A stretch of 64,000 nt of DNA from Bradyrhizobium lupini (GTDB lineage: Bacteria > Pseudomonadota > Alphaproteobacteria > Rhizobiales > Xanthobacteraceae). The number at the start of each line of letters is the position of its first letter. Position 1 is the stretch's first letter. The notes under the pieces are model-generated. The model ran no database searches. It saw nothing but the letters and a program-made list of their open reading frames with translations, and was not told where the DNA came from. The DNA lies in assembly GCF_040939785.1 (NCBI RefSeq), contig NZ_CP162553.1, positions 6,033,001 to 6,097,000 of the forward strand. Reading direction: 5' to 3'. This document shows, in pieces, positions 10,771-27,735 of this stretch. A program made the translations under genes and the position numbers.

Positions 10771-11043
10771 ATGAGCAATTCACTGCTCGCTTTGGTCCTG
10801 TTGGACACGCCGGCAACGCCGGACATGTCGGCGCTTGCGAAGGCCCTCCGCGCTCGACATCCTGAACTGGCAACTGAGGTTGCAGAGAATGGAGACGCGC
10901 AACAGGCTCAGGCAAACTCGCCGCCGGCGATACGTTTGGTCGCGACTCGCGCGAGCGCTTCTCGGCTCGTTATCAGGCCTCCGATCGATTCGAAGGCTTG
11001 CCCGTTCTTTTCTGTGCCGATGGCTCGGCATAATCAGCGTTAA
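10771..11043 (+). CDS. Hypothetical protein, possibly the truncated N terminus of a larger gene
   Basis: The first 40 residues (starting [19 protein letters not shown]) look like a real folded N terminus with a beta strand and a helix. The second half is low-complexity Ala/Arg/Ser. It ends where the yedK relic begins. It may be a gene start joined to unrelated sequence when the neighbouring rearrangement took place. No named family can be given safely. Confidence 0.4.
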
Positions 11044-11727
11044 CCCAGCTCGCCCGATCTTACGGCTGTAGCAGTGGTGAACGCATCTTCCTTCTCGATG
11101 CCGCGCGCAACAATCTTCAAGCTTTCATCCGGCAGCGGCCGTTGCAGTGCTTTGGCTTCATCCCACGGCGCCCTCAGCCAAATCTCTCGCTCTTCCGCTG
11201 TAGTCAGGATCACCGGCATTGCCTTCGGATGGATTGGCTCCACGACCGCATTCGGCGTCGTGGTAAGAAAACCGTACACCTGATGCGGTCCGGGGATCGG
11301 CTTCGACTTGGTGCCGCGATCACCATTGAAAGTCGTCCAGATCCCGGCGAACGCGAACAGCGGCCGGGCGTCCGGCGAGCGCAAACCACACGATGTCTTT
11401 CTTCTTCGTCTCCGGGTTGGGCTCCGGCGCGTATTCGGCAAAGCTGTTGAGTGGCACGAGGCAGCGGTGCTCCGGCTTGAGCCACGCGCGCCAGTGCGGC
11501 GACGAGGTGTTGCGAATGTTCGTGACGGGCGGGCCGCCGGTACGCGGAGGGGGCGGCATGCCCCAGCGCATCAGCACCATCTCTCGCTCGCCGCCCGCAT
11601 CGCGAATGATTGGCGCGGGGTAATCCGGAAACACACCCGGCATTGGCGCCAAATTGCCGACTTACCGGTTGACGACCCGGAACAGCGCGCTGATGGCGGC
11701 CTGGTTGGTGGTGATGGAGTACAGGTT
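11040..11727 (-). pseudogene. yedK: Decayed yedK/SRAP (abasic-site shield) gene, left copy
   Basis: Reading leftward from the RIT element, the minus strand encodes NLYSITTNQAAISALF and then the SRAP core ([43 protein letters not shown], and [12 protein letters not shown] in another frame). It has three lesions. Met1 and the catalytic Cys2 are missing because the element abuts codon 3. A TAA replaces the Tyr codon present in the right copy after VVNR. A frameshift near 11360 splits the C-terminal third into another frame. SRAP proteins bind abasic sites in single-stranded DNA through Cys2, so this copy is inactive. It is a paralogue of the right copy, not an identical duplicate. Confidence 0.85.
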
Positions 11728-11835
11728 ATGCCGACGTCGGCATAATCTCTACTATGCCGACCTCGGGATTATGCCGACCATTGGCTCTGAACGGGCTCTG
11801 GCGGCGGCGATCGCTGCGTTAGAGTCGGCATAATC
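11726..11835. repeat. Left terminal inverted repeat of the RIT element
   Basis: 110 bp matching the reverse complement of 15017-15126 with about three mismatches. It starts with the palindrome TTATGCCGACGTCGGCATAA (11726-11745). The half-site TATGCCGAC or its complement recurs at about 11752, 11770 and 11824, giving five copies per end. These are probably recombinase-binding sites. Confidence 0.9.
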
Positions 11836-11888
11836 CGATTGGTCTCACAGCGTACAGTCTCCCCCTTGCCAATTGAAGGGAGGCTTTC

Positions 11889-13112
11889 ATGTTGATTGAT
11901 CTGTCACGAGTTGGGGTTTCGGGTCCGCTTTCGGCATTCGCGACTGGGTTTGCCGACCACATGACACGACAAGGCTATAACCCACACCAGACCCGCCTGC
12001 ACTTATTGCTGCTAAACCACCTGAGCAATTGGCTTGCGAGCGAGGGGCTCGTTGTAGGGGAACTGCGCACAAAGGAAGTAGAGCGGTTTCAGCTCAGCCG
12101 TGATGAAGCGGGTTACAGCTTTCTTCGCTCTATCAGAGCGATGCAGCCGATCCTCGGTTACCTGCGCGGTCTTGGGATCGCACCGCCGGCCTCGTCACCT
12201 CCGGTCAGCGGAGTGCTTGAAGCGGCCCTGGCGCGATACCGAGGTTACTTGATACTTGAACGTGGCATCAGGAATGCGTCAGCGTCCCGGTATATTGAAC
12301 TGATGCGTCCCTTCCTTCAAACCAAGGTCTCGCCGGACGGCCTTACTCTGGACCTTCGAAGCCTGACGGCGGCTGACGTCATTTCCTTTGTGGTGACAAA
12401 CTGCCCTCGCCTCAGCCCTGGGACGGCCGGGTTGACAGTGTCGGCCCTTCGATCACTACTCGGTTTTCTTTACGTCGACGGCGTTATCGATCGGTCACTC
12501 GTGTCTGCGGTACCGACCGTTCCCGGTCGGCGATTAACCGGATTGCCGAAGGGATTGGCCGCTGACCAAGTGCAGCGCCTTCTGGCGTCCTGCGACACCA
12601 GCACCCGAAGTGGCTGTCGTGACTTCGCGGTCCTGACCATGCTTGTTCGCCTGGGCTTGCGGGCAGGCGAAGTCGCCAAACTGCAGCTTGAGCATATCGA
12701 TTGGCGAGGCGGCGAGATCGTGATTGCCCACAGCAAAGGCAATCGCACCGAACGACTGCCATTGCCTGCAGACGTCGGCGAAGCAATCGCGGCTTACTTG
12801 CATCACAGCCGTCCCGCAAGCACGCAAGGCCGAATGGTGTTTGCACGGATCACAGCTCCGCATCACGCTCTCACCACTGGCGCGGTAACGCAGATTGTTC
12901 GCCACGCTGGCGAACGGTGCGGCTTTGAACCGATCCATGCTCACCGGCTGCGTCACACCGCAGCGACTCTGATGCTACGCGGCGGTGCATCGCTGCCCGA
13001 GATCGGACAACTCCTGCGCCACCGCAACGCCATTACGACATCGATCTATGCCAAGGTCGATCGCGATGCTCTGCGGTCGATCGCTCGCCCCTGGCCGGGT
13101 GTCGTCGCATGA
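11889..13112 (+). CDS. RIT tyrosine recombinase A
   Basis: A 407-residue integrase-family enzyme. An N-terminal SAM-like core-binding domain is followed by a catalytic domain. The first catalytic Arg is in RLGLRAGEVAKLQ near residue 257, the HxxR box is HAHRLRHTAATLML near 350, and the nucleophile Tyr is in TSIYAKVD near 387. ATG 11889 follows GAAGGGAGGC. It is the first of three co-transcribed recombinases and its stop overlaps the next start by four bases. In known RIT elements all three act together on the terminal repeats. Confidence 0.92.
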   Translation: MLIDLSRVGVSGPLSAFATGFADHMTRQGYNPHQTRLHLLLLNHLSNWLASEGLVVGELRTKEVERFQLSRDEAGYSFLRSIRAMQPILGYLRGLGIAPPASSPPVSGVLEAALARYRGYLILERGIRNASASRYIELMRPFLQTKVSPDGLTLDLRSLTAADVISFVVTNCPRLSPGTAGLTVSALRSLLGFLYVDGVIDRSLVSAVPTVPGRRLTGLPKGLAADQVQRLLASCDTSTRSGCRDFAVLTMLVRLGLRAGEVAKLQLEHIDWRGGEIVIAHSKGNRTERLPLPADVGEAIAAYLHHSRPASTQGRMVFARITAPHHALTTGAVTQIVRHAGERCGFEPIHAHRLRHTAATLMLRGGASLPEIGQLLRHRNAITTSIYAKVDRDALRSIARPWPGVVA

Positions 13113-14032
13113 ACGCTCTCCGCAAGGCTCTCGCAGACTACTTTGTGGTTCGCCGCGCCCTCGGCTTTAAGCTCTATCGAGCCGAGAAGCTCCTCGGTCA
13201 GTTTCTCACCTTCGTCGAGGATCGCGGCGAAGATCATCTGACAACCGAGGCGGCGCTCGCTTGGGCGACGCTTCCTAAGCGCGGTCGAACCTGGGCATTT
13301 GCCCGGCTTTCCGTTGTTCGCCGCTTCGCTAAACACCTGCGCGGGATCGACCCCGCGACCGAGGTGCCCCCGACCCACTTGCTGGTGCAGCAAAAGGGCC
13401 GAGCAACGCCCTACCTATATTCGGAGTCGGATATCGCGGCCCTCATCGCCGCGGCCGGGACGCTGCGGACACCGCACCGAGTGGCGACATTTCGGACATT
13501 GATCGCCTTGCTTGCAGTGACCGGAATGCGGGTTGGGGAAGCGATCGGCCTCGACCGCGACGATTTTGACTCCGTCATTGGACTACTCACTATCCGGAAC
13601 GCAAAGTTCGGCAAGTCTCGCCAATTACCGCTGCATCCGAGCACGGTGGCTGCACTGGTTGATTATCTGCGTCGAGACGACCGTCCGACAAACTCGTCGA
13701 ATACGCCGGCACTGCTGGTCACTACGGTTGGCACCAGATTCCACTACATGGGTATCCAGCCCGTCTTTCGTCAAATTGTGGATGTCGCCGGCCTGAAGCC
13801 GCGCTCTGCCTCATGCCGTCCGAGGCTGCATGATCTGCGGCATGGATTTGCCGTCAATACCATCCTTGACGGATATCGAGATGGCAGGGAGCCGGGGAAC
13901 CGGATCGCGTTGCTGTCGACCTACCTCGGCCACGTCGATCCTGTCAGCACATATTGGTATCTTTCAGATGCGCCGGAGTTGCTGACGCTGGTTGGTGATC
14001 GTTTGGAGCGGCACCTCGGAGGTGCCGCATGA
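13109..14032 (+). CDS. RIT tyrosine recombinase B
   Basis: A 307-residue integrase-family protein. Catalytic Arg lies in TGMRVGEAIGLD near residue 141, LHDLRHGFAVNT near 240, a histidine in YLGHVDPVS near 274 and Tyr in STYWYLSD near 283. The insertion between the HxxR box and the second histidine (ILDGYRDGREPGNRIALL) is longer than in its two neighbours and typical of the middle RIT protein. It starts with ATGA overlapping recombinase A and ends with ATGA overlapping recombinase C. Confidence 0.9.
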   Translation: MNALRKALADYFVVRRALGFKLYRAEKLLGQFLTFVEDRGEDHLTTEAALAWATLPKRGRTWAFARLSVVRRFAKHLRGIDPATEVPPTHLLVQQKGRATPYLYSESDIAALIAAAGTLRTPHRVATFRTLIALLAVTGMRVGEAIGLDRDDFDSVIGLLTIRNAKFGKSRQLPLHPSTVAALVDYLRRDDRPTNSSNTPALLVTTVGTRFHYMGIQPVFRQIVDVAGLKPRSASCRPRLHDLRHGFAVNTILDGYRDGREPGNRIALLSTYLGHVDPVSTYWYLSDAPELLTLVGDRLERHLGGAA

Positions 14033-15126
14033 CCGCACTTGCCCCAACCCTGCAAGCGTTCTTCACGGAACGCCTCATCCGCCAGCGCCAGGCTAGTCTC
14101 CATACACTTGCAGCCTACCGGGACACGCTGCGGCTGCTGCTGATTTTCGCGTCCGCGAGGAAGGACGTCGAACCATCGAAGCTGGACATCCACGATCTTG
14201 ATGCGCCGCTCATCGGCGCCTTCCTCGACCATCTTGAGAAGCAGCGCGAGAATAGTGCGCGCACCCGCAATGCTCGACTTGCCGCCGTCCGTTCGCTGTT
14301 CCGGTACGCAGCGCTTCGACATCCCGAGCATGCCGCCGTAATCGAGCGGGTGCTTGCCATTCCACGCAAGCGTTTCGACCGAAGGCTCGTCACTTTCCTG
14401 ATCGAACCTGAACTCGATGCGCTGTTCCGCGCACCCGACCGCTCGACCTGGACCGGGCGGCGCGACCATACCCTGCTTACGCTCGCGGCCCAAACGGGCC
14501 TGCGCGCGTCAGAATTGATCGGCCTTCGCATCAGCGATGTTCATCTCGGCACTGGCGCCCATATCAGTTGCATGGGGAAAGGACGGAAGTTGCGGATCAC
14601 ACCGATTACCGCGGGTATGGTCGCCCTCCTGCGTGTTTGGCTCGCCGAGCGCGCGGGTCTTCCGGCGGAGCCACTTTTCGTCACCCGATCGGGAACGTCA
14701 CTCAGCCGTGACGCCCTCGAACATCGGCTCGCCAAATACGTTCAGATCGCAACCCCCGCCTGTCCGTCGTTGGGACAGAAATCCATCAGCATGCATGTGT
14801 TGCGTCATAGCGCCGCGATGCGACTGCTGCGGGCAGGAATTGAGACCTCGGTGATAGCACTTTGGCTCGGCCACGAGCAGGTCGAAACCACCCACATCTA
14901 CCTACACGCTGATATGGGAATCAAGGAACGCGCACTGGCCGCGACAGCTCCAGCGGTAGCCACCCCCGGTCGTTTTCGACCGAATGACAAGCTTCTCGCA
15001 TTTCTGGAGGCGCTGAGATTATGCCGACTCCAACGCAGCGATCGCCGCCGCCAGAGCCCGTTCAGAGGCAATGGTCGGCATAATCCCGAGGTCGGCATAG
15101 TACAGATTATGCCGACGTCGGCATAA
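14029..15126 (+). CDS. RIT tyrosine recombinase C, C terminus encoded in the terminal repeat
   Basis: A 365-residue integrase-family enzyme with Arg in TGLRASELIGLR near 158, HVLRHSAAMRLL near 259, WLGHEQVETT near 281 and Tyr in HIYLHAD near 290. The enzyme fold ends near KLLAFLEAL. The last 37 residues are encoded by the right inverted repeat, and the stop codon TAA is the final base triplet of the palindrome. Tail sequence and element end are therefore the same DNA, so the tail is probably not under normal protein selection. Confidence 0.9.
   Translation: MTALAPTLQAFFTERLIRQRQASLHTLAAYRDTLRLLLIFASARKDVEPSKLDIHDLDAPLIGAFLDHLEKQRENSARTRNARLAAVRSLFRYAALRHPEHAAVIERVLAIPRKRFDRRLVTFLIEPELDALFRAPDRSTWTGRRDHTLLTLAAQTGLRASELIGLRISDVHLGTGAHISCMGKGRKLRITPITAGMVALLRVWLAERAGLPAEPLFVTRSGTSLSRDALEHRLAKYVQIATPACPSLGQKSISMHVLRHSAAMRLLRAGIETSVIALWLGHEQVETTHIYLHADMGIKERALAATAPAVATPGRFRPNDKLLAFLEALRLCRLQRSDRRRQSPFRGNGRHNPEVGIVQIMPTSA
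15017..15126. repeat. Right terminal inverted repeat of the RIT element
   Basis: 110 bp, the reverse complement of 11726-11835 with about three mismatches (for example C for T near 15031 and G for C near 15067). It ends in the same 20-bp palindrome. It also encodes the tail of recombinase C. Confidence 0.9.
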
Positions 15127-15844
15127 TCTCTATTCGATCACCACCAACCAGGCCGCCATCAGCGCGCTGTTCCGCGTCGTCAACCGGTACGTCGGCAACC
15201 TGGCGCCGATGCCCGGCGTCTTTCCGGACTACAAGGCGCCGATCGTCCGGACGGGCCCCGATGGCCGCGAGCTGGCTACCGCGCGCTGGGGCATGCCGTC
15301 GTCATCGAAAGCTCTGATGGACGCCACCAAGAAGCGCGCCGAGAAACTGCAAGCGAAGGGCAAGACCGTCGACTTCAAGGAATTGCTCCGGATGGAGCCG
15401 GATTCTGGAACGACCAACATCCGCAACGTGAAGAGCAAACACTGGACGCGCTGGCTCGGCGTCGAAAATCGCTGCGCGGTGCCGTTCAACTCGTTCAGCG
15501 AGTTCAACAAGGCCGAGGGCGGCGACGTCTGGTTCGCGCTCGACGAAAGCCGACCGCTACTCTGCTTTGCTGGCATCTGGACCAACTGGACGTCGGTCCG
15601 GAAGGTCAAGGAGGGAGAGACTACGAACGACCTCTACGCTTTCCTGACGACGGAGCCTAACGCGGAGGTCGGCGCGATCCACCCGAAGGCCATGCCGGTG
15701 ATCCTCACGACGCCGGAAGAGGTCGAGACCTGGATGACCGCGCCTCCGGACGAGGCGCTGAAGCTGCAGCGGCCTCTTCCGGACGGAGCGCTCCGGATCG
15801 TGGCACGGGGTCTGAAGGAAGATACCCCGGCTTCGCCTTCCTGA
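15125..15844 (+). pseudogene. yedK: yedK/SRAP gene lacking Met1-Cys2, right copy
   Basis: An open frame reads NLYSITTNQAAISALF directly from the RIT end and continues through an intact SRAP domain: [58 protein letters not shown] and GALRIVARG. A 35-residue insertion around residue 65 is absent from the left copy. Going upstream in frame there is no start codon before a TAG within the repeat, so translation could begin only at the internal Met codon at 15209. The product would lack Cys2, which forms the thiazolidine crosslink to abasic DNA. The body is otherwise undamaged, so loss of the start looks recent. Confidence 0.85.
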
Positions 15845-15956
15845 CTTCGCGGACACCGAGCGATCGGCGAGTAGGCAGCTGGAGCCCGAGGCACTTGACT
15901 TCACTCACAGCATTCGAACAAAAATAGAACAAACGATTCCAGCCGCGAAGGTCCGC

Positions 15957-18110
15957 TTGGCCAAACTGCCGCAACTGCCTGTTTACTATTATCTCAACCA
16001 TTTCGCCGAAATGCTCGGGTTCGTGCAGAGGACGTACGAACCCGTTCTTGGCCCTGATCATCACGCTTTCATAGCGCGCTTCGAGGGCCTTTCGAGAGAT
16101 GCCCGATGCCTGTTGATCCGCATGATCAACCGGCGTGGTGCGATATTCAATCGGTCCCTGTTCGACTACCCCGAGATCGACGATATCGAGCAGGCCACGT
16201 CGGATCTGATGATGGCCGGTCATGCCCGGGTGCTCGGCGAAGTCGACTATCCCGGGTTCGTCGCGTGTCTTCCCAAAGATGTCCTCTTCACCGGAGCACA
16301 GGCGGCTGGGCGCAAAGACGTCCGCAAGTCCTGGGCCAAAGCCAAGTTCATCGACTATTATATCGAACAGATCCCATTCTCGACGGCCGCGCAGCACTGC
16401 GGCGCCCGGAAATTCATCGCTCTCGACGGCACGCGGCCAATCGAATTCCTGCTCTATCTCTACTTCGGCAAGACCGAGGTGAACCTCAAGAACTTCGCGC
16501 TGCGGGACCTGGGCATCCTCCACACCAACCGCGAGACCGCGTTCAGCGCACGTTTCACCGATGCCGAGGAGGCGCTTGCCTCGTTCCACTACAACCAGAT
16601 TCTCGACAGCCTTGAGGACGGATCGGAGCCTGTCCACAGGCGGGCCGCCATCGACGTGCTGTCCGGGCCTGCCTGCGGGACACAGTACGCCAACAACCTC
16701 CGCAGCCGAGCGGCTCATCAGACCGGACTTTTCTTCGAGAAAGCGGGTGAGAGCGATCTTGCGCGGCAGCTCTACCGCGCGGGGTGCTCGCCGGAGTGCA
16801 ACGAGCGTCTGGTCCGCCTGCTTTACAATACCGGGGATCGCACCGGAGCCGAAGACCTGCTGCAGCGGATGATCGATGATCCCGCCAGCGACGGGGAGCA
16901 CGTTTTCGCAACTGACTATTACGCTCGCAAGTTCGGAGGGAGGCGCACAGGCGTCTGCACCGAACTGCTGCGGTCCGGGCGAACGATCACCGTCGACGAT
17001 ACCCATCGCGGCAATCCAGAAGCAGGCGTCGCCGGCGTTCTGCGGCGTGAGGGCACCAAGGTTTTCTTCACCGAGAATGTGCTGTGGCACACCCTGTTCG
17101 GCCTTCTCTTCTGGGACGAACTCTTCGAGAGCACCCGAATGCCCAGCGGGTTCGACTGGCTACCGCATTGCCTGAAGGACCGAAGCTTCCGTCGGCTCTT
17201 CGCGGTGCAGATCGATGAGAAGCTGGCCGCCGTCGCGTCCGGAGCTTCTCTTCCGTTGATCCTACGCACCGTCGCAGCAAAATGGGGCCGCCCGAATGGG
17301 ATCTTCAACTGGGATCATGTGCAAGTGGAGGCGCTCCGCGCGCTCCTCGAAGGACTCGATGCCCCCGCCATAGCCAGCATCGTCCGCAGCATGTGCGACG
17401 ATTTCCGCGGCATGCGGGACGGTTTCCCCGACCTGATGCTGGTGCAGGACGGCAAAGCGTCCTTCATGGAGGTGAAGGCGGAGGGGGACGTGATCCGCCG
17501 CAACCAGCTGACCCGCCTCCGCCAGCTCGGCGCCGCCGGCATCATCGCTGAGATCGGTCGGGTGGACTATCGTTTCGACCCCGAGCAGGATTACGTGGTG
17601 GTCGATATCGAGACGACCGGCTCCTGGTCGAATGGCGATCGCATCACCGAGATCGGCGCGGTGAAGGTTCGCAATCACTGTGTCGTCGACGAGTGGCATT
17701 CTCTCATCAATCCTCAGCGTTCCATTCCCGCAAAGATCGTTCAGCTGACCGGCATCACAAACGAAATGGTTCGGGATGCACCTTTGTTCGCGGAGGTAGC
17801 GGACCGTTTCATGGAGTTCATGGGGGACGGCATTTTCGTCGCCCATAATGTCAGCTTCGACTACGGTTTCATGGTCTACGAATTCGATAGGATCGCGCGG
17901 CGCTTCAAATTCCCGAAGCTCTGTACGTGCGCCGGAATGCGGCGGCGGTATCCGGGACACAAGTCCTACGGACTTGGGAAGCTTTGCGAGATATATGGCA
18001 TCTCGCTCGATAATCATCATCGAGCCTTATGCGATGCGCGGGCCTCGGCGCAGTTGTTGAATCTCATCAACAAGAAGCGGAGCGAGGAGGGGTACCGCGA
18101 GGCAGCGTAG
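15957..18110 (+). CDS. FAN1-like VRR-NUC nuclease fused to a DEDDh 3'-5' exonuclease
   Basis: A 717-residue protein. Residues 1 to about 420 are a helical region resembling the bacterial FAN1 N-terminal and TPR parts. The VRR-NUC motif follows: FPDLMLV near 490 and FMEVKAEGD near 502, giving the PD...EVK catalytic set. The C-terminal 170 residues are a DnaQ-type exonuclease with VVVDIETTG near 548, AHNVSFDYGF near 630 and HHRALCDARAS near 688. FAN1 enzymes cut flapped and crosslinked DNA, and the added proofreading-type exonuclease could trim the product. The start is a TTG at 15957; no better upstream start is seen. It stands downstream of the yedK relic in the repair-rich region. Confidence 0.82.
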   Translation: MAKLPQLPVYYYLNHFAEMLGFVQRTYEPVLGPDHHAFIARFEGLSRDARCLLIRMINRRGAIFNRSLFDYPEIDDIEQATSDLMMAGHARVLGEVDYPGFVACLPKDVLFTGAQAAGRKDVRKSWAKAKFIDYYIEQIPFSTAAQHCGARKFIALDGTRPIEFLLYLYFGKTEVNLKNFALRDLGILHTNRETAFSARFTDAEEALASFHYNQILDSLEDGSEPVHRRAAIDVLSGPACGTQYANNLRSRAAHQTGLFFEKAGESDLARQLYRAGCSPECNERLVRLLYNTGDRTGAEDLLQRMIDDPASDGEHVFATDYYARKFGGRRTGVCTELLRSGRTITVDDTHRGNPEAGVAGVLRREGTKVFFTENVLWHTLFGLLFWDELFESTRMPSGFDWLPHCLKDRSFRRLFAVQIDEKLAAVASGASLPLILRTVAAKWGRPNGIFNWDHVQVEALRALLEGLDAPAIASIVRSMCDDFRGMRDGFPDLMLVQDGKASFMEVKAEGDVIRRNQLTRLRQLGAAGIIAEIGRVDYRFDPEQDYVVVDIETTGSWSNGDRITEIGAVKVRNHCVVDEWHSLINPQRSIPAKIVQLTGITNEMVRDAPLFAEVADRFMEFMGDGIFVAHNVSFDYGFMVYEFDRIARRFKFPKLCTCAGMRRRYPGHKSYGLGKLCEIYGISLDNHHRALCDARASAQLLNLINKKRSEEGYREAA

Positions 18111-18411
18111 CAATTCATAACCGAGCAGATGCCTGGAAGGGCTGAGCTATCGGTCGCATCTGAGAATTCAGTCGGTTCTAACAACGGTTCTCCGCCATGT
18201 GATCCAATTCCAGAGCGCCGCGGTCGGGATGGCAATGCCGAACAGCCTGCAGGGCACTGGCGCCTCATCCCGGCACCGGAAGGTGTCGTTGTGCACAGCG
18301 CGCGGAACACGGGGACAAACTCAGCCCTGCCGATTGCGAATCCCTGCTGCATGCTAACCGCCCGGAACGAGAAGACGGGCGAGGGGATTCGTCCCGGCAG
18401 GAGCAAGCTCG
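18111..18411. other. Intergenic interval
   Basis: 300 bases with no gene that I can support. Two GGAAC sequences occur on the plus strand (18306 and 18363), but neither has a matching -10 at 16-17 bases. Confidence 0.35.
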
Positions 18412-18675
18412 ATGCTGATGACCAAGGAAAAACGGCCGCCGATCAGAACGCTGCGCGGATGGGCGCTCGGTGTGCTGCAGGAGGCGGGCGCCGTCCACGA
18501 ATGCGAGGAGCATGGCTGGGCAAAGGAGCGGGCCGACCCTCACGCCCGGGAGCGCGCGTTGGACATCGCGAGGCAGGAGCCTCCGGACGGCTTGTCTCCG
18601 GACCAGGCTGTCGCCGAGGTCCGCGGAGTGCTGGATTCGATCGGCGATACCTGCCCTGAATGCCCGCCCGACTGA
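18412..18675 (+). CDS. Small conserved hypothetical protein
   Basis: An 87-residue protein starting MLMTKEKRPPIRTLRGWAL and ending in a Cys/Pro-rich tail (DTCPECPPD). The middle is helical and charged (ARERALDIARQEPPDGLS). ATG 18412 follows AGGAGCAAGCTC. Short proteins with the same style are frequent in Bradyrhizobium. The function is unknown. Confidence 0.6.
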   Translation: MLMTKEKRPPIRTLRGWALGVLQEAGAVHECEEHGWAKERADPHARERALDIARQEPPDGLSPDQAVAEVRGVLDSIGDTCPECPPD

Positions 18676-18715
18676 AGCGCACCAACAACCCACGGTCCGA
18701 TGCCGCTGTCGATGA

Positions 18716-19726
18716 TCAAGGGATCAGGGGCGCTGCCGTGGTGCCAAGATGCTCAGCAGCGGCACGCACCCGCCCAGCGTGCTTTCGCCGCTGCTCAGCG
18801 AACTTCGCTGCGTCCACCGACGAACGCACCTTGTAGCCAGCCGCCGTCAAGCGGGCGCACACCCGCGGAACTGCCGCAGCAGTGGTATCGTCAGATTTGG
18901 CCTCAAGGCCGATCAGTCCATTCAGATCGTCGATCAGGCGCAATCCTTCGCTTCGGAGCAGGATCGCAGGCGCTCGACTCGCGGGGTCCTCGATCAGCAG
19001 TTCGAACATCAGTGCGAGGTCCATCATGGCTCCGAGCGTTGCAGGCCAGCCCGAGCCCACGCCGACCGATCGGAAGTAGATCAGCGATGGATGGGAAGCA
19101 TGGCTCTGCAGGACGGTGGCGCACCAATCCCGTCCCCTGTAAAGCACGCGCCTGATCTCCTCCGGAGAGTCGAGGTCGGCATAACGCTCCAGCAGTCCGA
19201 GAGCCGAGGGCGGCTGACCCGCAGCCGTCGTAAGTTTGAGAATTCCAGCATCGCGGCGGGAAATGCCTTCTTGCACCTGGAGCAGGTATGTGACGGCCAT
19301 CGTTAGGACCGAAAGGCCCGAAAGGCCGGCTAAGACCAGGGCCCAGCGGGCCGGACCGTGGGCCTCGATGCCGCTCAGCCCCACCGTGCACAACGCGCTT
19401 CCGACGATGAAGAGCGCCTCCTGGAAATCGGCCGCTGGAGAGAACCAGTCCCCTAACGCATGCGCGATGAGCCCATACCCGAGCAAGAGAAGCGCCATCC
19501 AGATCAGGAAGGAGCCCATGAGGATGGACGGCGCGAAGCTGGTCGACACCCCACTCTTGCCGCGGCGGGCCCACTTCCAAATCGGGAGCGCGACGGTCAG
19601 GAGCCGCCGGGCCACGCGCAGCGCGCCCCTACTCTCGCCCGGAACCACCACCGTGTCGAATACATCGCGTAGTGCGAAGACGACCAGGACCATTCCGGCA
19701 GCGATCTCGATGGTCTGCACGATCAT
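18716..19726 (-). CDS. Ion-channel-like integral membrane protein
   Basis: A 336-residue protein with a first hydrophobic helix at residues 3-22, then two or three more between 65 and 170. A pore-loop-like stretch, FIVGSALCTVGLSGIE near residues 104-119, resembles the TVGYG selectivity filter of two-helix potassium channels but is not an exact match. The rest is a soluble helical domain. The family is probably an ion channel 2 (Ion_trans_2) relative. Ion specificity cannot be judged. Confidence 0.6.
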   Translation of the reverse strand: MIVQTIEIAAGMVLVVFALRDVFDTVVVPGESRGALRVARRLLTVALPIWKWARRGKSGVSTSFAPSILMGSFLIWMALLLLGYGLIAHALGDWFSPAADFQEALFIVGSALCTVGLSGIEAHGPARWALVLAGLSGLSVLTMAVTYLLQVQEGISRRDAGILKLTTAAGQPPSALGLLERYADLDSPEEIRRVLYRGRDWCATVLQSHASHPSLIYFRSVGVGSGWPATLGAMMDLALMFELLIEDPASRAPAILLRSEGLRLIDDLNGLIGLEAKSDDTTAAAVPRVCARLTAAGYKVRSSVDAAKFAEQRRKHAGRVRAAAEHLGTTAAPLIP

Positions 19727-19768
19727 AACGGAATGCCAGCGGCGCAGGGCGAACTCCGCCCGAACACG

Positions 19769-19882
19769 TCACGTCCCCGAACGCGTAGCGAAATGCACCG
19801 CGGCCATGACGACCAACACAGCGAGCAGGAAGGTTCCCGCGGAGATCGATCTCCGTCCATGTGACTGGCGGGCCAGATGCAT
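19769..19882 (-). CDS. 37-residue single-helix membrane protein
   Basis: ATG at 19882 (MHLARQSHGRRSISAG) opens a short frame with a basic N terminus and one hydrophobic helix (FLLAVLVVMAAVHFA). GGAG lies eight bases upstream, and a candidate EcfG-type promoter lies 26 bases ahead of the start. The promoter supports its being a real stress-induced gene. Confidence 0.5.
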   Translation of the reverse strand: MHLARQSHGRRSISAGTFLLAVLVVMAAVHFATRSGT

Positions 19883-19907
19883 CGGAGCACTCCGATTATC
19901 GGCGACC

Positions 19908-19932
19908 AACCCGGCTGAGTTGCGTTCGTTCC
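19908..19932 (-). promoter_or_regulatory. Candidate EcfG-type promoter, GGAAC-N16-GGTT
   Basis: On the minus strand GGAAC (19932-19928) precedes GGTT (19911-19908) by 16 bases, one mismatch from the consensus CGTT. It is placed correctly for the small membrane-protein gene starting at 19882. Confidence 0.4.
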
Positions 19933-20068
19933 GAAGCGGCCGACGGCCCGTGTCGAGGGGGACCCTAGCGCCGACGCGCCACCCAACCCAATACTTTGTC
20001 GTAGGAGGAACCTGTCCGGCTCGTCCCGATTGGCTTGTCGCACCAGAACTCTGACGAACGGCGCGGCC

Positions 20069-22060
20069 ATGGTCGAATTCGCACAGCTTCGCGACCGCAT
20101 GGTCCAGGTTCAACTTGCACGCCGCGGCATCCGCGATCGGCGCGTTCTGGATGCGATGGCACAGGTCCCTCGAGAGCGGTTCGTGGAAACCGGTTTCGAG
20201 GAATTCGCCTACGAGGACGGCGCGCTGCCGATCGCGAACGCGCAGACCATCTCGCAGCCTTACATCGTCGCGCTGATGACGGAGGCGGCCGAGCTGAAGC
20301 CCGCGGACAAGGTGCTCGAGGTCGGAACCGGTTCGGGCTATGCGGCGGCGGTCGCATCGCGGCTCGCCAGAACGGTTCACACCGTCGAGCGCCATCGCGC
20401 CCTAGCCACGACCGCCGCCGAGCGGCTTGCGGCGCTCGGCTATGACAATTGCGTCGTCCATACAGGCGACGGCACCGGCGGATTGCCGGAAGAGGCGCCG
20501 TTCGATTCGATTCTCGTCGCGGCCGGCGGTCCGGAAGTACCGGACGCGCTCAAGGGCCAATTGGCCATTGGGGGGCGTCTCGTCATCCCAATCGGCGATT
20601 TGGAGCACGAACAATCGCTGCTGCGGATCACGCGCCGGAGCGACACCCAATACGACGAAGAAGCCTTCGGGGCCGTTCGCTTCGTGCCCCTGATCGGAGA
20701 GCACGGATGGGCCGAGGACGGCACGCGCTCCGCCAGCAATCACGTCCCTGGGCGTACGCGCTTCCGCTCGCTCACCGACATGATCGGCGCCGCCCTCGAA
20801 CCGCTGCCGGCTTTCGACGATCCCGCCTTCGGCGCCTTCTTCGATCGCTTTGCGCAGTCCCGGGTCGTGCTGCTGGGCGAAGCCAGCCACGGCACGTCGG
20901 AGTTCTACGGGGCGCGCGCTGCGATCACGCGGCGCCTGATCGAGAAGCACGGGTTCACGACCGTCGCGGTGGAAGCCGATTGGCCGGACGCCGCGGCGGT
21001 CGACCGCTACGTTCGCCACCGGTCGTCACGCGGTTCGGGCGAGAAGCCGTTCGAACGCTTCCCGACCTGGATGTGGCGAAACACCGACGTCGCCGCTTTC
21101 GTCGACTGGATGCGCGAGCACAACGAAAGCAAGCCGGCAGGCGAGCGGGCCGGATTCTTCGGGCTCGACATCTACAACATGCGGAGCTCGATCGCGGCCG
21201 TTCTCGCCTACCTAGATGGTGTAGATCCACAAGCCGCGGCCGTGGCGCGCGAGCGCTACGGATGCCTAACCCCTTGGCAGCGCGAACCTTCGACCTACGG
21301 CCGTGCCGTCCTGACCGAAGCCTATCGGAAATGCGAGGCGGAGGTGGTTCGCCAGTGCCAGGACATCCTGGGAAAGCAACTCGACTACGCCGCGAACGAC
21401 CCGGACAGCTTCCTGGACGCTGCGCAGAACGCGCGGTTGATCGCCTCCGCCGAGCGCTACTACCGGATCATGTACTATGGCGGGGCCGAATCCTGGAACC
21501 TGCGCGACACGCACATGTTCGAAACCTTGGGCCATATCTTGGACGCCCAGGGGCCGCGATCCAAGGCGGTGGTCTGGGCGCATAATTCTCATATCGGCGA
21601 CGCACGCTTCACCGAGATTGGGGCGGTCCGCAAGGAGCTCAACATCGGTCAGCTTTGTCGAGAGAAGTTCGCCGAGGCGGCGTCCCTGGTCGGCTTCGGC
21701 ACCCATACCGGCACCGTGGCCGCCGCGTCGGACTGGGACGGCGAGATGGAAGTGATGCAGGTGCGGCCCTCTCGACCGGACAGCTACGAGCGGCAGTTCC
21801 ACGACGCTGGTGTGCCGCGCGGCCTGCTCGAATTCCGCCGGGACGAGAGCCTTCGGCGTCGCTTGCTCGGGCCGCGCCTCGAACGGTTCATCGGCGTCAT
21901 CTACCGGCCGAACACCGAACTGCAAAGCCATTACGCCGAAGCGTCGCTGCCTCAGCAGTTTGATGCATTCTTGTGGTTTGATGAGACGAAGGCAGTCAGG
22001 CCCTTGGGACCGGAACATCGCCGCGCCGGCGTCCCGGATACCTATCCGTTCGGACTCTGA
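20069..22060 (+). CDS. Protein-L-isoaspartate methyltransferase fused to erythromycin-esterase-type hydrolase
   Basis: A 663-residue two-domain protein. Residues 1-220 are a PCMT (SAM-dependent, repairs isoaspartyl residues), with VPRERFVETGFEEFAYED, TISQPYIVALMTE and the SAM motif VLEVGTGSGYAAAVAS. Residues 245-655 are an erythromycin-esterase-like domain with LLGEASHGTSEFY near 275, VAVEADWPDA near 305 and VWAHNSHIGD near 505, which carry the expected catalytic Glu and His residues. The start ATG 20069 gives the standard PCMT N terminus; an in-frame TTG at 20030 is possible. This family is not restricted to macrolide resistance, so antibiotic inactivation should not be assumed. Confidence 0.85.
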   Translation: MVEFAQLRDRMVQVQLARRGIRDRRVLDAMAQVPRERFVETGFEEFAYEDGALPIANAQTISQPYIVALMTEAAELKPADKVLEVGTGSGYAAAVASRLARTVHTVERHRALATTAAERLAALGYDNCVVHTGDGTGGLPEEAPFDSILVAAGGPEVPDALKGQLAIGGRLVIPIGDLEHEQSLLRITRRSDTQYDEEAFGAVRFVPLIGEHGWAEDGTRSASNHVPGRTRFRSLTDMIGAALEPLPAFDDPAFGAFFDRFAQSRVVLLGEASHGTSEFYGARAAITRRLIEKHGFTTVAVEADWPDAAAVDRYVRHRSSRGSGEKPFERFPTWMWRNTDVAAFVDWMREHNESKPAGERAGFFGLDIYNMRSSIAAVLAYLDGVDPQAAAVARERYGCLTPWQREPSTYGRAVLTEAYRKCEAEVVRQCQDILGKQLDYAANDPDSFLDAAQNARLIASAERYYRIMYYGGAESWNLRDTHMFETLGHILDAQGPRSKAVVWAHNSHIGDARFTEIGAVRKELNIGQLCREKFAEAASLVGFGTHTGTVAAASDWDGEMEVMQVRPSRPDSYERQFHDAGVPRGLLEFRRDESLRRRLLGPRLERFIGVIYRPNTELQSHYAEASLPQQFDAFLWFDETKAVRPLGPEHRRAGVPDTYPFGL

Positions 22061-22179
22061 CGGTGAGGTCTCCGACCAGCGAGTGCCCTCGGAACTCAGG
22101 AACCGCCCTCAGACGTGCCGAGATGCACTGCGACCACAAGGTCAAGCCCGCGACCAGGCGGGCACTGCCGGCGAAAGGT

Positions 22180-22428
22180 CTAGCGCCGGCGCGCGACCCA
22201 TACACCGAGCAGGAACGCTACGCACAGCGACTGCAGCGGCGCCTTCAAGGTCACCTCGCGAAGTTTGTCGACCCAGCGCATCGCGGCATCCCGCGACGTC
22301 GGCCGCAGCGGGCGCCGGCTCGTTTCCGCCTCGGCGCGCAATCTCGCCGCGGACACATGATCGACGCCGTCCTGTTCGTTCGTCAGGCCGGACGCTTCCG
22401 TCATTGCCGAGGCTTCTTTCATATCCAT
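22180..22428 (-). CDS. Small membrane-anchored stress-type protein (DUF883-like character)
   Basis: An 82-residue protein with a charged helical N half and one C-terminal hydrophobic segment (LCVAFLLGVWVARRR) ending in arginines. This layout is typical of ElaB/YqjD-like (DUF883) proteins. It is separated by 16 bases from the upstream Ku gene on the same strand and may be co-transcribed with it. Confidence 0.55.
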   Translation of the reverse strand: MDMKEASAMTEASGLTNEQDGVDHVSAARLRAEAETSRRPLRPTSRDAAMRWVDKLREVTLKAPLQSLCVAFLLGVWVARRR

Positions 22429-22444
22429 GCGGCTCTCCTATTTG

Positions 22445-23362
22445 TCAGGCGGACTTCCGCTGCGACCTGGCCGCCGGCTTCTTCGCCCCCGCCTCCTTCG
22501 CGGGCTTCTTGCCGGCGATCGGCATCAGCATCTCCTTCTGGCCTGCAGCAGCCTTCCGTGGCTTCTTGGCGGCCTTCGCCGGCGCGGCCTCCTGACCTAC
22601 GCTCCGCCGCAGCGCCTCCATCAGGTTGACCACGTTGGTCGCGGCGGGCTTTTCCTTGGGCGTGATCGGCTTGCCGGCGCGCTTCTGGTTGATGAGCTCG
22701 ATCAGCGCGGTCTCGTAGTGGTCCTCGAACTTCTCCGGCTCGAAGTTGCCCGCCTTCTGGTTCACGATGTGCCTCGCGAGATCGAGCATGTCCTTGGTCA
22801 CCTTCACGTCCTGGATCTCGTCGAAATACTCCTGCTCGGAGCGCACTTCGTAGGGATAGCGCAGCAGCGTGCCGACGAGACCCTTGTCCATCGGTTCGAG
22901 CGCGATGATGTGCTCGCGGTTGGTCAGCACCACCCGCCCGATCGCGACCTTGTCCATCTCCCGGATAGTCTCGCGGATCACGGCGAAGGCGTCATGGCCG
23001 ACCTTGCCGTCCGGACGGATGTAGTAGGGCCGGATGAGGTATCGCGGGTCGATGTCGGACTTGTCGACGAACTCGTCGATCTCGATGGTGCGCGTGGACT
23101 CAAGCGCAATCTCCTCGAGCTCCTCCTTCGTGACCTCGATGAACTGATCCTTCTCGAGCTGGTAGCCCTTGACGATGTCCTCGTTTGGCACCTCGTCGCC
23201 CGTGTCGGCGTCGACCTTGAGGTACTTGATGCGGTGGCCGGTCTGCCGGTTGAGCTGGTTGAACGAGATCTTCTCGCTCTCCGACGTCGCCGGATAGAGC
23301 GCGACCGGGCAGGTGACGAGGGACAGACGCAGGAAGCCTTTCCAGTTTGCTCGCGGGGCCAT
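22445..23362 (-). CDS. ku: Non-homologous end-joining protein Ku
   Basis: A 305-residue bacterial Ku homologue that binds double-strand ends and recruits LigD. It opens with MAPRANWKGFLRLSLVTCPV, the typical Ku start, followed by the beta-barrel core (HRIKYLKVDADTGDEV, DPRYLIRPYYIRPD). A Lys/Ala-rich C-terminal tail (KKPRKAAAGQK) is as expected for DNA binding. A LigD-type ligase-polymerase lies 1.6 kb away on the opposite strand, so the two-component NHEJ set is present. Confidence 0.95.
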   Translation of the reverse strand: MAPRANWKGFLRLSLVTCPVALYPATSESEKISFNQLNRQTGHRIKYLKVDADTGDEVPNEDIVKGYQLEKDQFIEVTKEELEEIALESTRTIEIDEFVDKSDIDPRYLIRPYYIRPDGKVGHDAFAVIRETIREMDKVAIGRVVLTNREHIIALEPMDKGLVGTLLRYPYEVRSEQEYFDEIQDVKVTKDMLDLARHIVNQKAGNFEPEKFEDHYETALIELINQKRAGKPITPKEKPAATNVVNLMEALRRSVGQEAAPAKAAKKPRKAAAGQKEMLMPIAGKKPAKEAGAKKPAARSQRKSA

Positions 23363-23531
23363 GGTTACGCAACGCTCCAGGTAAGGGTACTTGGATCAAG
23401 ACGAACGGCGCGACACAGTTCCGACACTGCTCGCTGGCGTCCACCGCCAAATTGAGGGCACGCCCGGTCAAGCGCCTGGCAGACGTGGCGGGCGCGCTTG
23501 ACTCTTACGAACAAAATGAGAACATGCACCG

Positions 23532-23756
23532 ATGACCCAACCCATGGCATCCGAACCGGCCAGCTTCGACTTGGAGGACGCCGCCGACCAGGCGATTGCG
23601 GCCTGTGGGGGCGACGCTCGGGAAGCTCTCAAGGCGCTCATCATCGCGAATGGCTTCCTGGAGACGCAGGTGGAAGAGCTGCGGGCTTCGATTTCTGCCG
23701 GCTATTCGCGCGGCCGGTTCGACGTACCGCGCGACCGGAAGGATTGGTACGACTGA
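23532..23756 (+). CDS. Small conserved hypothetical protein
   Basis: A 74-residue acidic helical protein (EDAADQAIAACGGDAREAL) ending in an aromatic C terminus (RDRKDWYD). The pattern is common in rhizobial genomes. It is divergent from ku and immediately followed (TGACATG) by the frameshifted gene at 23758. Confidence 0.65.
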   Translation: MTQPMASEPASFDLEDAADQAIAACGGDAREALKALIIANGFLETQVEELRASISAGYSRGRFDVPRDRKDWYD

Positions 23757-23757
23757 C

Positions 23758-24005
23758 ATGCCTGCGGTGACCTACTATGTGGCTCTGCCGTTCCTTCCTT
23801 CGGATGACGGTATCGCTGCCGGCGAAGCCGTCGAATGCTTCAATCCCAAGCCGCCGTGATGAAGGCCGAGGCGCCTTCGCGAAAGCCTGGCATTGTTGGC
23901 GCAGTGGCCTTCAGCCGCAGCGGGGATCCGGCTACAGGCGAATTCGGAGACGCAACCGTGATCCGCAAGTTCGGCGACGTGCCGGAAGACCTGAGCACCT
24001 TGTGA
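23758..24005 (+). pseudogene. Small conserved gene split by a one-base deletion
   Basis: Frame 1 (23758-23859) reads MPAVTYYVALPFLPSDDG and ends CFNPKPP-stop. A second frame beginning at 23859 reads MKAEAPSRKPGIVGAVAFS and runs to a stop at 24005. Adding one base near 23849 (CCC-AA-GCC) joins them into one protein of about 80 residues of a type common in Bradyrhizobium. The function is unknown. It could be a true mutation or a sequencing slip. Confidence 0.6.
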
Positions 24006-24043
24006 AAGGGACGCGCGGAGATGTTCTGCGCGAGCCCCGGCAA

Positions 24044-24508
24044 TTACCTCCCGCTGAGCGATAGGCTCATACGAGTGACGGTGTTGTCCCAGGCGCGCTC
24101 CTCTTCTGCGGGATAGTTGATCAGGAGGCAATGGATCAGCCGCCCCGAGAAGTTGCAGCGGTTGTACCAGACCTTGTCGCCCCTGTAGCTGGAGACCGCA
24201 AAGAACCGTGGTGTCACTCGCTTGTACTGAATGCGTGAAGGCGGATGTTTTTTGGCGAGAAAGGCCGCGGGTGAATCGTTCTCGACGTTGGGCGCAGCCT
24301 GGATCGTGATGTCGGCCCGCCCGTCGGCGGTTCGGAACCGTTGCCCGTAGCCGTCGGGTCGGCCAGCTTCTTCCGTGAAGACCGAAGATGGGAAATCCAT
24401 CGAGGTGCCGGTCTGGGGAATGGTGTACTTGGTCCATCGCACCGGCTGCGCCGACGCCGTCGCTGTCGAGACGACAAGTGCCAATGCGAGAGCGCTCGTC
24501 GATTTCAT
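24044..24508 (-). CDS. Secreted hypothetical protein
   Basis: A 154-residue protein with a clear signal peptide (STSALALALVVSTATASA, cleavage near residue 21). The mature part has a beta-rich pattern (WTKYTIPQTGTSMDFPSSVF) and two cysteines near positions 118 and 127 that could pair in the periplasm. No enzyme motif is seen. Confidence 0.7.
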   Translation of the reverse strand: MKSTSALALALVVSTATASAQPVRWTKYTIPQTGTSMDFPSSVFTEEAGRPDGYGQRFRTADGRADITIQAAPNVENDSPAAFLAKKHPPSRIQYKRVTPRFFAVSSYRGDKVWYNRCNFSGRLIHCLLINYPAEEERAWDNTVTRMSLSLSGR

Positions 24509-24720
24509 CGCACTTCCCTCCGACTACCACGGAGCAAAAAGCCGGAACGTCAATTACGTTCCAGACGCCTGTTGCTATGGATTGGCAGCGCGCGAGCTAC
24601 TCGCCTTCCTCGTGGGGACCTTGGGATCGAGCCTGGTCAGCCTAGTCAGCCCGCCGGGCGAGAACCCGGCACCTCGAAAGGCGACGGTGATAGCGCCTCC
24701 GATGCTTTGGGCGCGCGGTG

Positions 24721-24897
24721 TCAGGCAGCGCGCAACGGGGACGTTGGACGACGGAGCCGGCCGATTTCCTCCGCCTGGCACCTCGGACACCTGAACTGGA
24801 TTTCGCGTTGCGCGGAAGCGGACTTTTGGATGTTCGCCGCCATAGGCCATGCGCCGCATTGGGGACATTTCTCCAGCAGAGTCTCCGATTCTATCAT
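24721..24897 (-). CDS. Small zinc-ribbon protein under a stress-type promoter
   Basis: A 58-residue protein starting MIESETLLEKCPQCGAWPM with CPQC near residue 11 and CPRC near residue 37. The ATG at 24897 is preceded by AAGGAGCGAGTGCG, and a perfect EcfG-type promoter lies 33 bases ahead. The function is unknown. Confidence 0.7.
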   Translation of the reverse strand: MIESETLLEKCPQCGAWPMAANIQKSASAQREIQFRCPRCQAEEIGRLRRPTSPLRAA

Positions 24898-24930
24898 CGC
24901 ACTCGCTCCTTCCCGCGCCCACGGCCCGCC

Positions 24931-24955
24931 AACGCTCGGAGACAAACCGCGTTCC
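24931..24955 (-). promoter_or_regulatory. EcfG-type promoter, GGAAC-N16-CGTT
   Basis: On the minus strand GGAAC (24955-24951), 16-base spacer, CGTT (24934-24931). This is an exact match to the known general stress response consensus, positioned 33 bases ahead of the zinc-ribbon start codon. Confidence 0.7.
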
Positions 24956-25008
24956 GGACGAGCCTAGGCGAGACACGGAACGAATCAGGGCGACGGCGTT
25001 GAATCGGC

Positions 25009-26826: not shown

Positions 26827-26831
26827 GCCAT

Positions 26832-27347
26832 ATGTCAGATGCATTCGATCAATGGGTGGAATGGCGCCACAAACCTCGCCGTGACAGGCGCAACATTCCT
26901 GCCGAACTGTACGCCGCGGTGATGTCGCTGCCTGAGGCCGATCGCTCCGACCGGCAAAGGGTGAACGAGGTGGTTCGCAGCCATGATGAAGCTCGCCGCG
27001 AGGGCAGAACCGTATGGCTCTACCTCGATTACCACGACCGCGCACCGCGCACGATTGAGGATTCCGGCTTGGTGAAGGTGTTTGCATCGGCCGACGTCGC
27101 CGAAAGGTGGCTCAAGGAAAACGACCCCGAAGGCGTAGCCTGGGAGTACGAAGTGGAAGGCGGTCGGGCGCGAGGATCGGTTTGGCTCCACTCGCACGAT
27201 CCGGAGTCCACAGACATTGGCGACGTCGATTGGGGCAGGCTCTTTGCCTCGCAAGCGTGTGCGGAAAAGTGGGTTGAGCAGAACGATCCGACGGCAAAAT
27301 TTGGGAGCATCCGGTTCAGGAGTGACGCCCATGAGCGCCTTCGTTGA
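26832..27347 (+). CDS. Hypothetical protein with two short internal repeats
   Basis: A 171-residue protein immediately downstream of ligD (five bases apart). A motif repeats: FASADVAERWLKENDPEG near residue 85 and FASQACAEKWVEQNDPTA near residue 138. Each is joined to a beta strand, which suggests a duplicated small alpha/beta fold. No catalytic signature is recognised. Its 3' end overlaps the PIN-toxin remnant start at 27331. Confidence 0.65.
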   Translation: MSDAFDQWVEWRHKPRRDRRNIPAELYAAVMSLPEADRSDRQRVNEVVRSHDEARREGRTVWLYLDYHDRAPRTIEDSGLVKVFASADVAERWLKENDPEGVAWEYEVEGGRARGSVWLHSHDPESTDIGDVDWGRLFASQACAEKWVEQNDPTAKFGSIRFRSDAHERLR

Positions 27348-27372
27348 CACGTCGGTATGGTTCGCCGCGCTA
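27331..27372 (+). pseudogene. N-terminal stub of a PIN-domain (VapC-type) toxin gene
   Basis: ATG 27331 begins MSAFVDTSVWFAAL, the diagnostic first strand of PIN-domain ribonucleases with its metal-binding Asp. The match stops after 14 codons, where IS110-type sequence begins on the other strand. The rest of the toxin gene is gone. It overlapped the end of the upstream gene, as toxin genes in operons often do. Confidence 0.6.
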
Positions 27373-27645: not shown

Positions 27646-27735
27646 GTCCTTGTCGCCCCTGGCCAGCTTATCGCTGGCGGGACAGGAGCACGGCCGGACC
27701 ATCTCATTAGTAGAAGTGACAGTCTCGCAGCCAGC

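What the first reader, a model, noticed from the sequence alone, without database searches (positions are those of the whole stretch)
11040..15844. RIT element exactly between two divergent yedK genes that both lack Met1-Cys2
Both flanks begin at codon 3 (NLYSITTNQ) of a SRAP gene facing away from the element, and neither has the start codon or the catalytic cysteine. The two yedK copies are paralogues of different length, so this is not a simple target duplication. One explanation is that RIT copies inserted at the same conserved site in two yedK genes and then recombined, placing both gene bodies around one element. The other is that the element replaced a shared divergent promoter region. 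Either way the repair shield would be inactivated twice at its key residue, which suggests that RIT elements target the yedK start.
Basis: partly seen in the sequence, partly recalled or inferred. Interest (0 to 1): 0.85.

Follow-up and report, generated by a model that had tools for sequence, protein, structure and literature searches.

The report
Transposon homing to yedK's start
A small mobile element in soil bacteria was found, in every case that could be read, cutting into the DNA-repair gene yedK at the same few bases just after its essential second amino acid, and two copies of it here appear to have moved a 120,000-base block of DNA between different yedK genes.

Summary
A RIT element (three tyrosine recombinase genes; 11753-15099) lies between the bodies of two yedK (SRAP) genes facing away from it, both without start codon and Cys2.

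The match at codon 3 is not chance. In 265 Bradyrhizobium genomes, 18 close RIT copies have 28 readable ends; all 28 lie at yedK codons 2-5 (15 start sides, 13 body sides). The element has 9-bp arms around an 8-bp spacer equal to yedK codons 3-5, and a palindrome of two arms on the body side only (11 of 13). Footprint, recombinase-less and cargo-bearing versions exist. A Rhizobium rhizogenes RIT (RitA 54% identical) uses the same site; other RITs sit in transposase or recombinase genes.

The left gene's missing start lies beside the genome's second, identical RIT, 126 kb away. In two relatives the gene is whole there, so about 120 kb, bounded by RITs and yedK bodies, was inserted here. The right gene's upstream region was not found in this genome. 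A shared divergent promoter is not supported. Most likely mechanism: site-specific insertion into paralogous yedK genes, then recombination between RIT copies. Mobility itself is untested, and the main RIT paper was not readable.

The parts
11040..11726 (-). body of yedK_L (SRAP), pseudogene: no ATG-TGC, stop and frameshifts; the 41-64 bp next to the element are of K2 type
11719..11726 (-). outer spacer of yedK_L (ACCTGTAC on the gene strand, codons 3-5)
11727..11744 (.). palindrome unit TATGCCGACGTCGGCATA (two arms back to back)
11745..11752 (+). inner spacer ATCTCTAC (yedK codon 3-5 sequence)
11753..15099 (+). RIT element proper, arm to arm, 3347 bp; identical over its whole length to copy 2
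11753..11835 (.). left terminal inverted repeat with arm copies at 11753-11761 and 11770-11778
11889..13112 (+). ritA, tyrosine recombinase, 407 aa
13109..14032 (+). ritB, tyrosine recombinase, 307 aa, 4-bp overlap with ritA
14029..15126 (+). ritC, tyrosine recombinase, 365 aa; reading frame runs through the terminal repeat
15017..15099 (.). right terminal inverted repeat with arm copies at 15074-15082 and 15091-15099
15100..15107 (-). inner spacer, ATCTGTAC on the minus strand: a mixture of the two spacers found around copy 2
15108..15125 (.). palindrome unit TATGCCGACGTCGGCATA
15126..15133 (+). outer spacer ATCTCTAT (yedK_R codons 3-5)
15126..15844 (+). body of yedK_R (SRAP), no ATG-TGC; left edge of the ~120-kb block that continues beyond the window to about genome position 6167988
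15126..64000 (.). window part of the inserted ~120-kb block (genome about 6048126-6167988)

Best explanation
This is a site-specific RIT transposon whose attachment site is the DNA of yedK codons 3-5. SHOWN by sequence: (1) this RIT clade sits at that site in every readable case; (2) the junctions have a repeated anatomy: gene start - 8-bp spacer - arm - element - arm - spacer - two arms back to back (palindrome) - spacer - gene body; the palindrome is on the body side whichever way the element points (11 of 13 body ends, 0 of 15 start ends); (3) the left gene here corresponds to one whole gene in relatives, and its two halves are now the outer flanks of two identical RIT copies 126 kb apart, with about 120 kb between them bounded by two other yedK bodies. 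INFERRED: the recombinases bind the arms and exchange strands in the spacer; the mobile form is a circle whose joint holds two crossover sites in opposite directions around the palindrome, so it can enter the asymmetric yedK spacer either way round but leaves the palindrome on the body side. The two-body arrangement arose by recombination between RIT copies: RITs in two outward-facing yedK genes (R and K2) released the block between them as a circle (leaving a start-RIT-start scar, a form seen in another genome), and the circle entered the RIT already in yedK_L. A conversion tract then gave yedK_L its K2-type end.
For: Site: 18 close RIT copies in 13 of 265 genomes; of 36 ends 15 are yedK starts and 13 yedK bodies, 7 truncated or at a contig end, 1 interrupted by other DNA (L053). 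The palindrome occurs 18 times in 12 of 265 genomes, its reversed control in 0; 11 of the 18 belong to those ends, and the other seven (L087, L088, L089, L090, L092, L093, L099) also abut a yedK body (L087 by eye). R. rhizogenes pColt5.8a RIT uses the same site with the same anatomy, its palindrome having one mismatch. Palindrome side. Other clades: of 38 RIT loci given, 32 had detectable terminal repeats; 23 score one-sided, 0 two-sided, 9 neither (background 12 of 2000 windows), with exceptions told in the report. Rearrangement: in G189 and G059 yedK_L is an open gene of 228 and 226 aa that joins the window's left flank to the right flank of copy 2; the same chromosomal flanks are neighbours in G017, G209 and G102, where the gene is damaged or partly lost. 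Element identical in both copies over 3347 bp. A start-RIT-start form exists in G237 (L055). The right inner spacer ATCTGTAC is what a crossover between copy 2's two outer spacers (ATCTCTAC, ACCTGTAC) would give.
Against: No donor arrangement with yedK_R and yedK_K2 flanking the same block was found: in the three best matches to the right flank (G127, G128, G209) about 3 kb is shared without a break, then only scattered pieces (the largest 2.2 kb in G209) in the 20-40 kb looked at; among 18 genomes searched, the DNA next to K2 matched for more than 1 kb only in G017 and G189 (3.1 kb; 8 kb in G189 when extended, on what is by length the plasmid of Bradyrhizobium sp. 4). No RepC gene, and no relaxase, T4SS or replication gene in 40 of 75 listed block ORFs, so how a circle would arrive is open. 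Two body ends (L064, L065, both on plasmids) lack the palindrome. The 25-bp footprint lacks one base that simple models predict. The natural yedK site shows little resemblance to the 9-bp arms (by eye), so what the recombinases read in the target is unknown. Nothing shows that these RITs move today.
Confidence: 0.8

Rival explanations
1. Ordinary homologous recombination alone made the locus: a RIT in one yedK was copied by gene conversion into others through yedK homology, and the recombinases had no part after the first insertion.
For: yedK_L ends in a 41-64 bp tract of K2 type next to the element, and both copies are identical from 11686 to 15102, the mark of a conversion tract.
Against: Cannot easily explain the same site in yedK genes of 13 genomes in both orientations with the palindrome on the body side, nor the R. 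rhizogenes case. It may well explain the last step here.
Confidence: 0.2
2. The element replaced the shared promoter region of two divergent neighbouring yedK genes.
For: Gives the observed gene order directly.
Against: In both relatives where both genes were seen they lie on different contigs; 6-8 kb upstream of yedK_R in six relatives has no match to the window's left flank, and the upstream side of yedK_L in G189 and G059 is DNA now found 126 kb away.
Confidence: 0.02
3. The palindrome is not part of the mobile unit but the scar of an earlier insertion into which later elements went.
For: Palindrome-only yedK genes exist (L090, L092).
Against: The palindrome lies on the same side in both element orientations, with arms matching the element's own ends, also in clades with other targets. 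L090 and L092 are identical over 3018 bp, so they count as one event.
Confidence: 0.2
4. The ~120-kb block is ancestral at this place and relatives lost it.
For: Block GC (0.58-0.68 per 5 kb) is close to the 0.63 of the first 10 kb of the window.
Against: A loss would have to rebuild a whole, open yedK_L exactly at codons 3-5 in G189 and G059.
Confidence: 0.03

Closest known systems
RIT elements (ritABC; Van Houdt 2009/2012, Ricker 2013)
   Same: Three overlapping tyrosine recombinase genes in order A-B-C, about 3.5 kb, inverted repeats at the ends; RITs in IS66 tnpA and in radC already reported for Cupriavidus and Bordetella petrii (PMC2864759, passages; PMC3414803, passages)
   Different: Here a fixed target codon motif, clade by clade, and a one-sided palindrome at the junction are described. 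PMC10214605 (table passage) lists RIT target specificity and movement as not tested. Van Houdt 2009 and Ricker 2013 were not read (reference-list entries only).
GInts and strand-biased circularizing elements (SEs)
   Same: Several tyrosine recombinases, target specificity; SEs carry 6 bp of a flank in their circular intermediate (PMC10214605, passages)
   Different: They carry a fourth gene (ginD / 'Srap', a name unrelated to the SRAP domain), absent here; target and end structure differ
Tn916/Tn1549-type tyrosine transposons
   Same: Spacer of a few bases between arms that can carry over from the previous site (recalled; PMC10214605 passage compares with Tn916)
   Different: They insert at loosely specified sites with an integrase and an excisionase (recalled); no palindrome unit known to me
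Composite transposons / IS-bounded islands
   Same: Two identical copies in direct orientation bound a large block
   Different: The block is bounded by bodies of target genes; movement is proposed to use paralogous target genes and RIT-RIT recombination
YedK/SRAP genes
   Same: Target gene family; Pfam SRAP
   Different: Copies here lost Met1-Cys2 and so should not form the Cys2 crosslink (Cys2 role recalled)

Membership tests
RIT element | three adjacent tyrosine recombinase genes in one direction with short overlaps | tested here: met
   ORFs overlap by 4 bp each; Pfam Phage_integrase 108.5, 58.7 and 105.8 bits
RIT element | length about 3.5 kb and terminal inverted repeats | tested here: met
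   3347 bp; inverted repeat found
RIT element | catalytic residues in all three proteins | tested here: met
   read by eye only: R and HxxR...H...Y motifs present in all three; motif recalled
RIT element | RitA with two core-binding domains (PMC8138268, passage) | not tested
   no structure was predicted
RIT element | mobility | not testable with these tools
   indirect only: two identical copies here, four copies in G191
GInt / SE | fourth conserved gene (ginD or Srap) | tested here: not met
   only three genes between the ends
active SRAP (YedK) | catalytic Cys2 after Met1 | tested here: not met
   both flanking copies start at codon 3
integrated repABC plasmid (for the 120-kb block) | RepC | tested here: not met
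   no PF03428 match in the genome
composite element (for the 120-kb block) | two copies of the mobile element bounding a block that is absent from the same site in relatives | tested here: met
   movement as a unit not shown

The most novel reading that the evidence does not exclude
RIT elements as a whole are motif-homing transposons: each clade reads the few bases that encode a conserved, often catalytic, motif of a multicopy gene family (SRAP Met-Cys-Asn-Leu-Tyr; IS256 WQRCRVH; IS66 TAKLN region; recombinase HxxRH), carries two opposed crossover sites around a palindrome, and pairs of copies can lift blocks of more than 100 kb from one paralogue to another.
Probability: 0.5. Interest if true: 0.85.

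Novelty: new variant of a known kind. Interest (0 to 1): 0.72.

Why it matters
RIT elements have been described since 2009, but a 2023 comparison table still listed their target specificity and movement as not tested. The finding gives an exact target, an end structure, a footprint and a predicted circle joint, so the mechanism becomes directly testable. It also suggests how an element that homes to paralogous genes can rearrange a genome on a 100-kb scale, and explains a class of truncated yedK genes in Bradyrhizobium.

Tried and rejected
Shared divergent promoter: not supported; separate loci in relatives. Block as an integrated repABC plasmid: no RepC; 40 of 75 listed ORFs scanned without transfer or replication genes. 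Locating yedK_R's 5' region in this genome: not found with G127's version; the upstream region is only partly alike among relatives, and the start-codon pattern covered ATG and GTG but not the TTG that some relatives use, so a diverged remnant could be missed. Tracing the flanks of the start-RIT-start copy in G237 to an ancestral order: its flank is a mosaic in other genomes, no answer. Donor block in relatives: only short collinear pieces. The automatic palindrome test misjudged the window (its homologous flanks were taken as terminal repeat) and L058 (cargo end), and counted an unrelated hairpin in L105 and L106; several of its loci are near-identical (L075-L078, L084), so they are not independent. 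Pfam on recombinase fragments: of four tried two matched (L071, L072, below the cut-off), L066 and L069 did not; L067 and L068 were not tried; those targets rest on reading the HDLRH/HDFRH motif. Citricoccus flanks: no Pfam match.
Full report
What is there. The window lies at 6033001-6097000 of a single 7.83-Mb contig. Between 11753 and 15099 stands a RIT element: ritA, ritB, ritC, overlapping by 4 bp, each a tyrosine recombinase by Pfam. Its ends carry inverted repeats with several copies of a 9-bp arm, TATGCCGAC / GTCGGCATA. Outside each end comes an 8-bp spacer, then an 18-bp palindrome that is two arms back to back, then another 8-bp spacer which is codons 3-5 of a yedK gene, then the rest of that gene. 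Both gene bodies face away and both lack ATG-TGC. The left one is a broken short-type SRAP, the right one a longer type with an open frame.

Is the site chance? RitA was searched in all 265 genomes of the genus held (at most six candidates per genome were scored and the list of weak matches was cut). Named matches show that the genus is Bradyrhizobium. Thirteen genomes hold 18 copies close to this one (90-100% identity, 78-81% in two short N-terminal pieces). I read both ends of all 18: of 36 ends, 15 are yedK starts ([ATG]TGTG[CT]AA[CT]CTNTA), 13 are yedK bodies starting at codon 3, 7 are unreadable because the element is truncated or the contig ends, and 1 (L053, right) is broken in the spacer by other DNA, with a yedK body 2.7 kb further on. 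So 28 of 28 readable ends are at yedK. The palindrome occurs 18 times, in 12 of 265 genomes (reversed control 0). Eleven belong to the ends just counted (L100, read, is the body end of L058). The other seven also abut a yedK body: a footprint without element in two genomes (L090 and L092, identical over 3018 bp, so one event; about 25 bp inserted, frame lost), a recombinase-less miniature element of 97 bp arm to arm (L093), truncated elements (L087, where the yedK piece is too short for a database match and judged by eye, L089, L099) and a contig end (L088). Four copies in G191 carry 1261 bp of extra DNA at the right end and still use the same site.

Anatomy and rule. The palindrome is on the body side in 11 of 13 body ends and in 0 of 15 start ends, although the element points either way relative to the gene. 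The two exceptions are plasmid copies (L064, L065). The last base of the spacer at start ends follows the element end (C, or T at the divergent right end in G191), while at body ends it varies with the gene. This is what a circle with two opposed crossover sites around the palindrome would give when it enters an asymmetric spacer. That circle is inferred; it was not observed.

Beyond yedK. A RIT on R. rhizogenes plasmid pColt5.8a (RitA 54%) sits in a yedK gene with start on one side and a near-palindrome (one mismatch) plus body on the other. A Hyphomicrobiales MAG copy (L108) has palindrome plus SRAP body on the right, but its left end, at the contig edge, does not look like a yedK start. Other RITs use other genes. 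Mesorhizobium (about 60%): an IS256/Mutator transposase at WQRC[RY]VH (Pfam for L104; L105 and L106 by eye); L104 has the palindrome on the downstream side, L105 and L106 lack a readable downstream side. L074, L075 and L080: IS66 transposase (Pfam), with L079, L081 and L082 judged alike by eye. L066-L069, L071 and L072: the HxxRH region of tyrosine recombinases by eye; Pfam supports two of the four fragments tried, below its cut-off. Streptomyces L190: a serine resolvase on one side (Pfam), the other side not identified. None of the 20 loci L066-L085 (L083 holds no RIT trio) has SRAP. Automatic test: of 38 loci given, 32 have terminal repeats; 23 have a palindrome of score 8 or more at one end, none at both, 9 at neither; background 12 of 2000 windows of this genome. 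Of the 23, L105 and L106 hold an unrelated hairpin. Of the 9, L017, L052 and L056 have it at score 7, L053 and L055 should not have it, L058 and the window were misplaced by the method, and L072 and L082 have imperfect ones by eye. Published passages fit: RITs in IS66 tnpA, and in radC in two genera (PMC2864759, passages), and an overlapping palindrome near the ends (PMC3414803, passages).

How the two bodies came together. The genome holds one more complete RIT, identical over the element's 3347 bp, at about 6167989-6171370. Its left flank is the body of a third yedK (K2); its right flank is a yedK start, CATATGTGCAATCTCTAC. In relatives G189 and G059 an open yedK_L (228 and 226 aa) joins the window's left flank to exactly that right flank; in G017, G209 and G102 the same chromosomal flanks are neighbours though the gene is damaged or partly lost. 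So the left flank of copy 1 and the right flank of copy 2 were one gene, and about 126 kb now separate them: RIT, about 120 kb beginning with bodyR and ending with bodyK2, RIT. yedK_R is a separate locus, open and with a start codon in six relatives. Its upstream region was not found in this genome (G127's version only). The simplest account is that RITs in R and K2, with bodies inward, recombined and released the block as a circle bearing body-RIT-body, which then entered a RIT in yedK_L. The left-over product predicted, start-RIT-start without palindromes, exists as a form in another genome (L055 in G237), though its own history could not be traced. The right inner spacer ATCTGTAC is the mixture expected from copy 2's spacers ATCTCTAC and ACCTGTAC. 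The K2-type tract at the end of yedK_L shows that homologous exchange or conversion also took part. Against this account: no genome was found with R and K2 at the two ends of this block.

What the block is. It carries metabolic, stress and end-joining genes; part of it (16-40.9 kb of the window) resembles Bradyrhizobium plasmids, the best at 82-86% over up to 39% of the query, and its K2 end resembles a malonate decarboxylase region of plasmid p4_1. No RepC, and no transfer gene among 40 of 75 listed ORFs. Whether it came from another strain or another place in this genome is open.

Consequence for the host. Three yedK genes of the NLY type are broken here, but one canonical SRAP (MCGRF...) is intact, so a repair defect is not implied. 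The role of YedK's Cys2 is taken from general knowledge; of the papers on it only search listings were seen.

Literature. Searches for RIT, target site, palindrome, Bradyrhizobium and yedK listed no paper whose title or shown abstract says that RITs target yedK or a clade-specific codon motif, and the RIT passages that I read in PMC3414803, PMC10214605, PMC2864759 and PMC8138268 do not say so. The library lacks most subscription papers, and Ricker 2013, the main RIT paper, was not read, so novelty is provisional.

Mended: the seven further palindromes (not eight), the extent shared with relatives, reading frames of the relatives' genes, lengths of the miniature and cargo-bearing copies.

Noticed in passing
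L057-L060 (genome G191): Four RIT copies carry 1261 bp more at the right end, seemingly a MerR-like and a carboxymuconolactone decarboxylase-like ORF (by eye), followed by a second ritC-tail-like end.
   Followed up: partly
L093:1390-1520 (G190): Miniature RIT of 97 bp arm to arm, both ends without recombinases, in a yedK start.
   Followed up: partly
L090 and L092, position 1501: Palindrome-only footprint of about 25 bp in yedK, lacking one base expected from simple excision; the two loci are identical.
   Followed up: partly
L191:4400-9000 (Citricoccus plasmid): A distant RIT also lies between two similar bodies of what looks like one protein family (no Pfam match; transposase-like by recall), possibly a second body-RIT-body arrangement from another phylum.
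   Followed up: partly
window:15957-18110: Gene next to yedK_R joins FAN1_HTH, VRR_NUC and RNase_T domains; in ten loci of nine relatives the DNA of this gene's first part follows yedK_R.
   Followed up: no
window:25009-40397: Block genes for LigD, a PolX-like polymerase and topoisomerase IB, as on Bradyrhizobium plasmids, beside a repair-linked yedK.
   Followed up: no
L011 (genome 6145560-6145826): Another SRAP remnant, below the family cut-off and with two stops, inside the 120-kb block.
   Followed up: no
L051-L053, L055, L061, upstream of the yedK starts: A conserved small ORF (FVHDL.SRLRC..C motif, by eye) precedes several NLY-type yedK genes.
   Followed up: no
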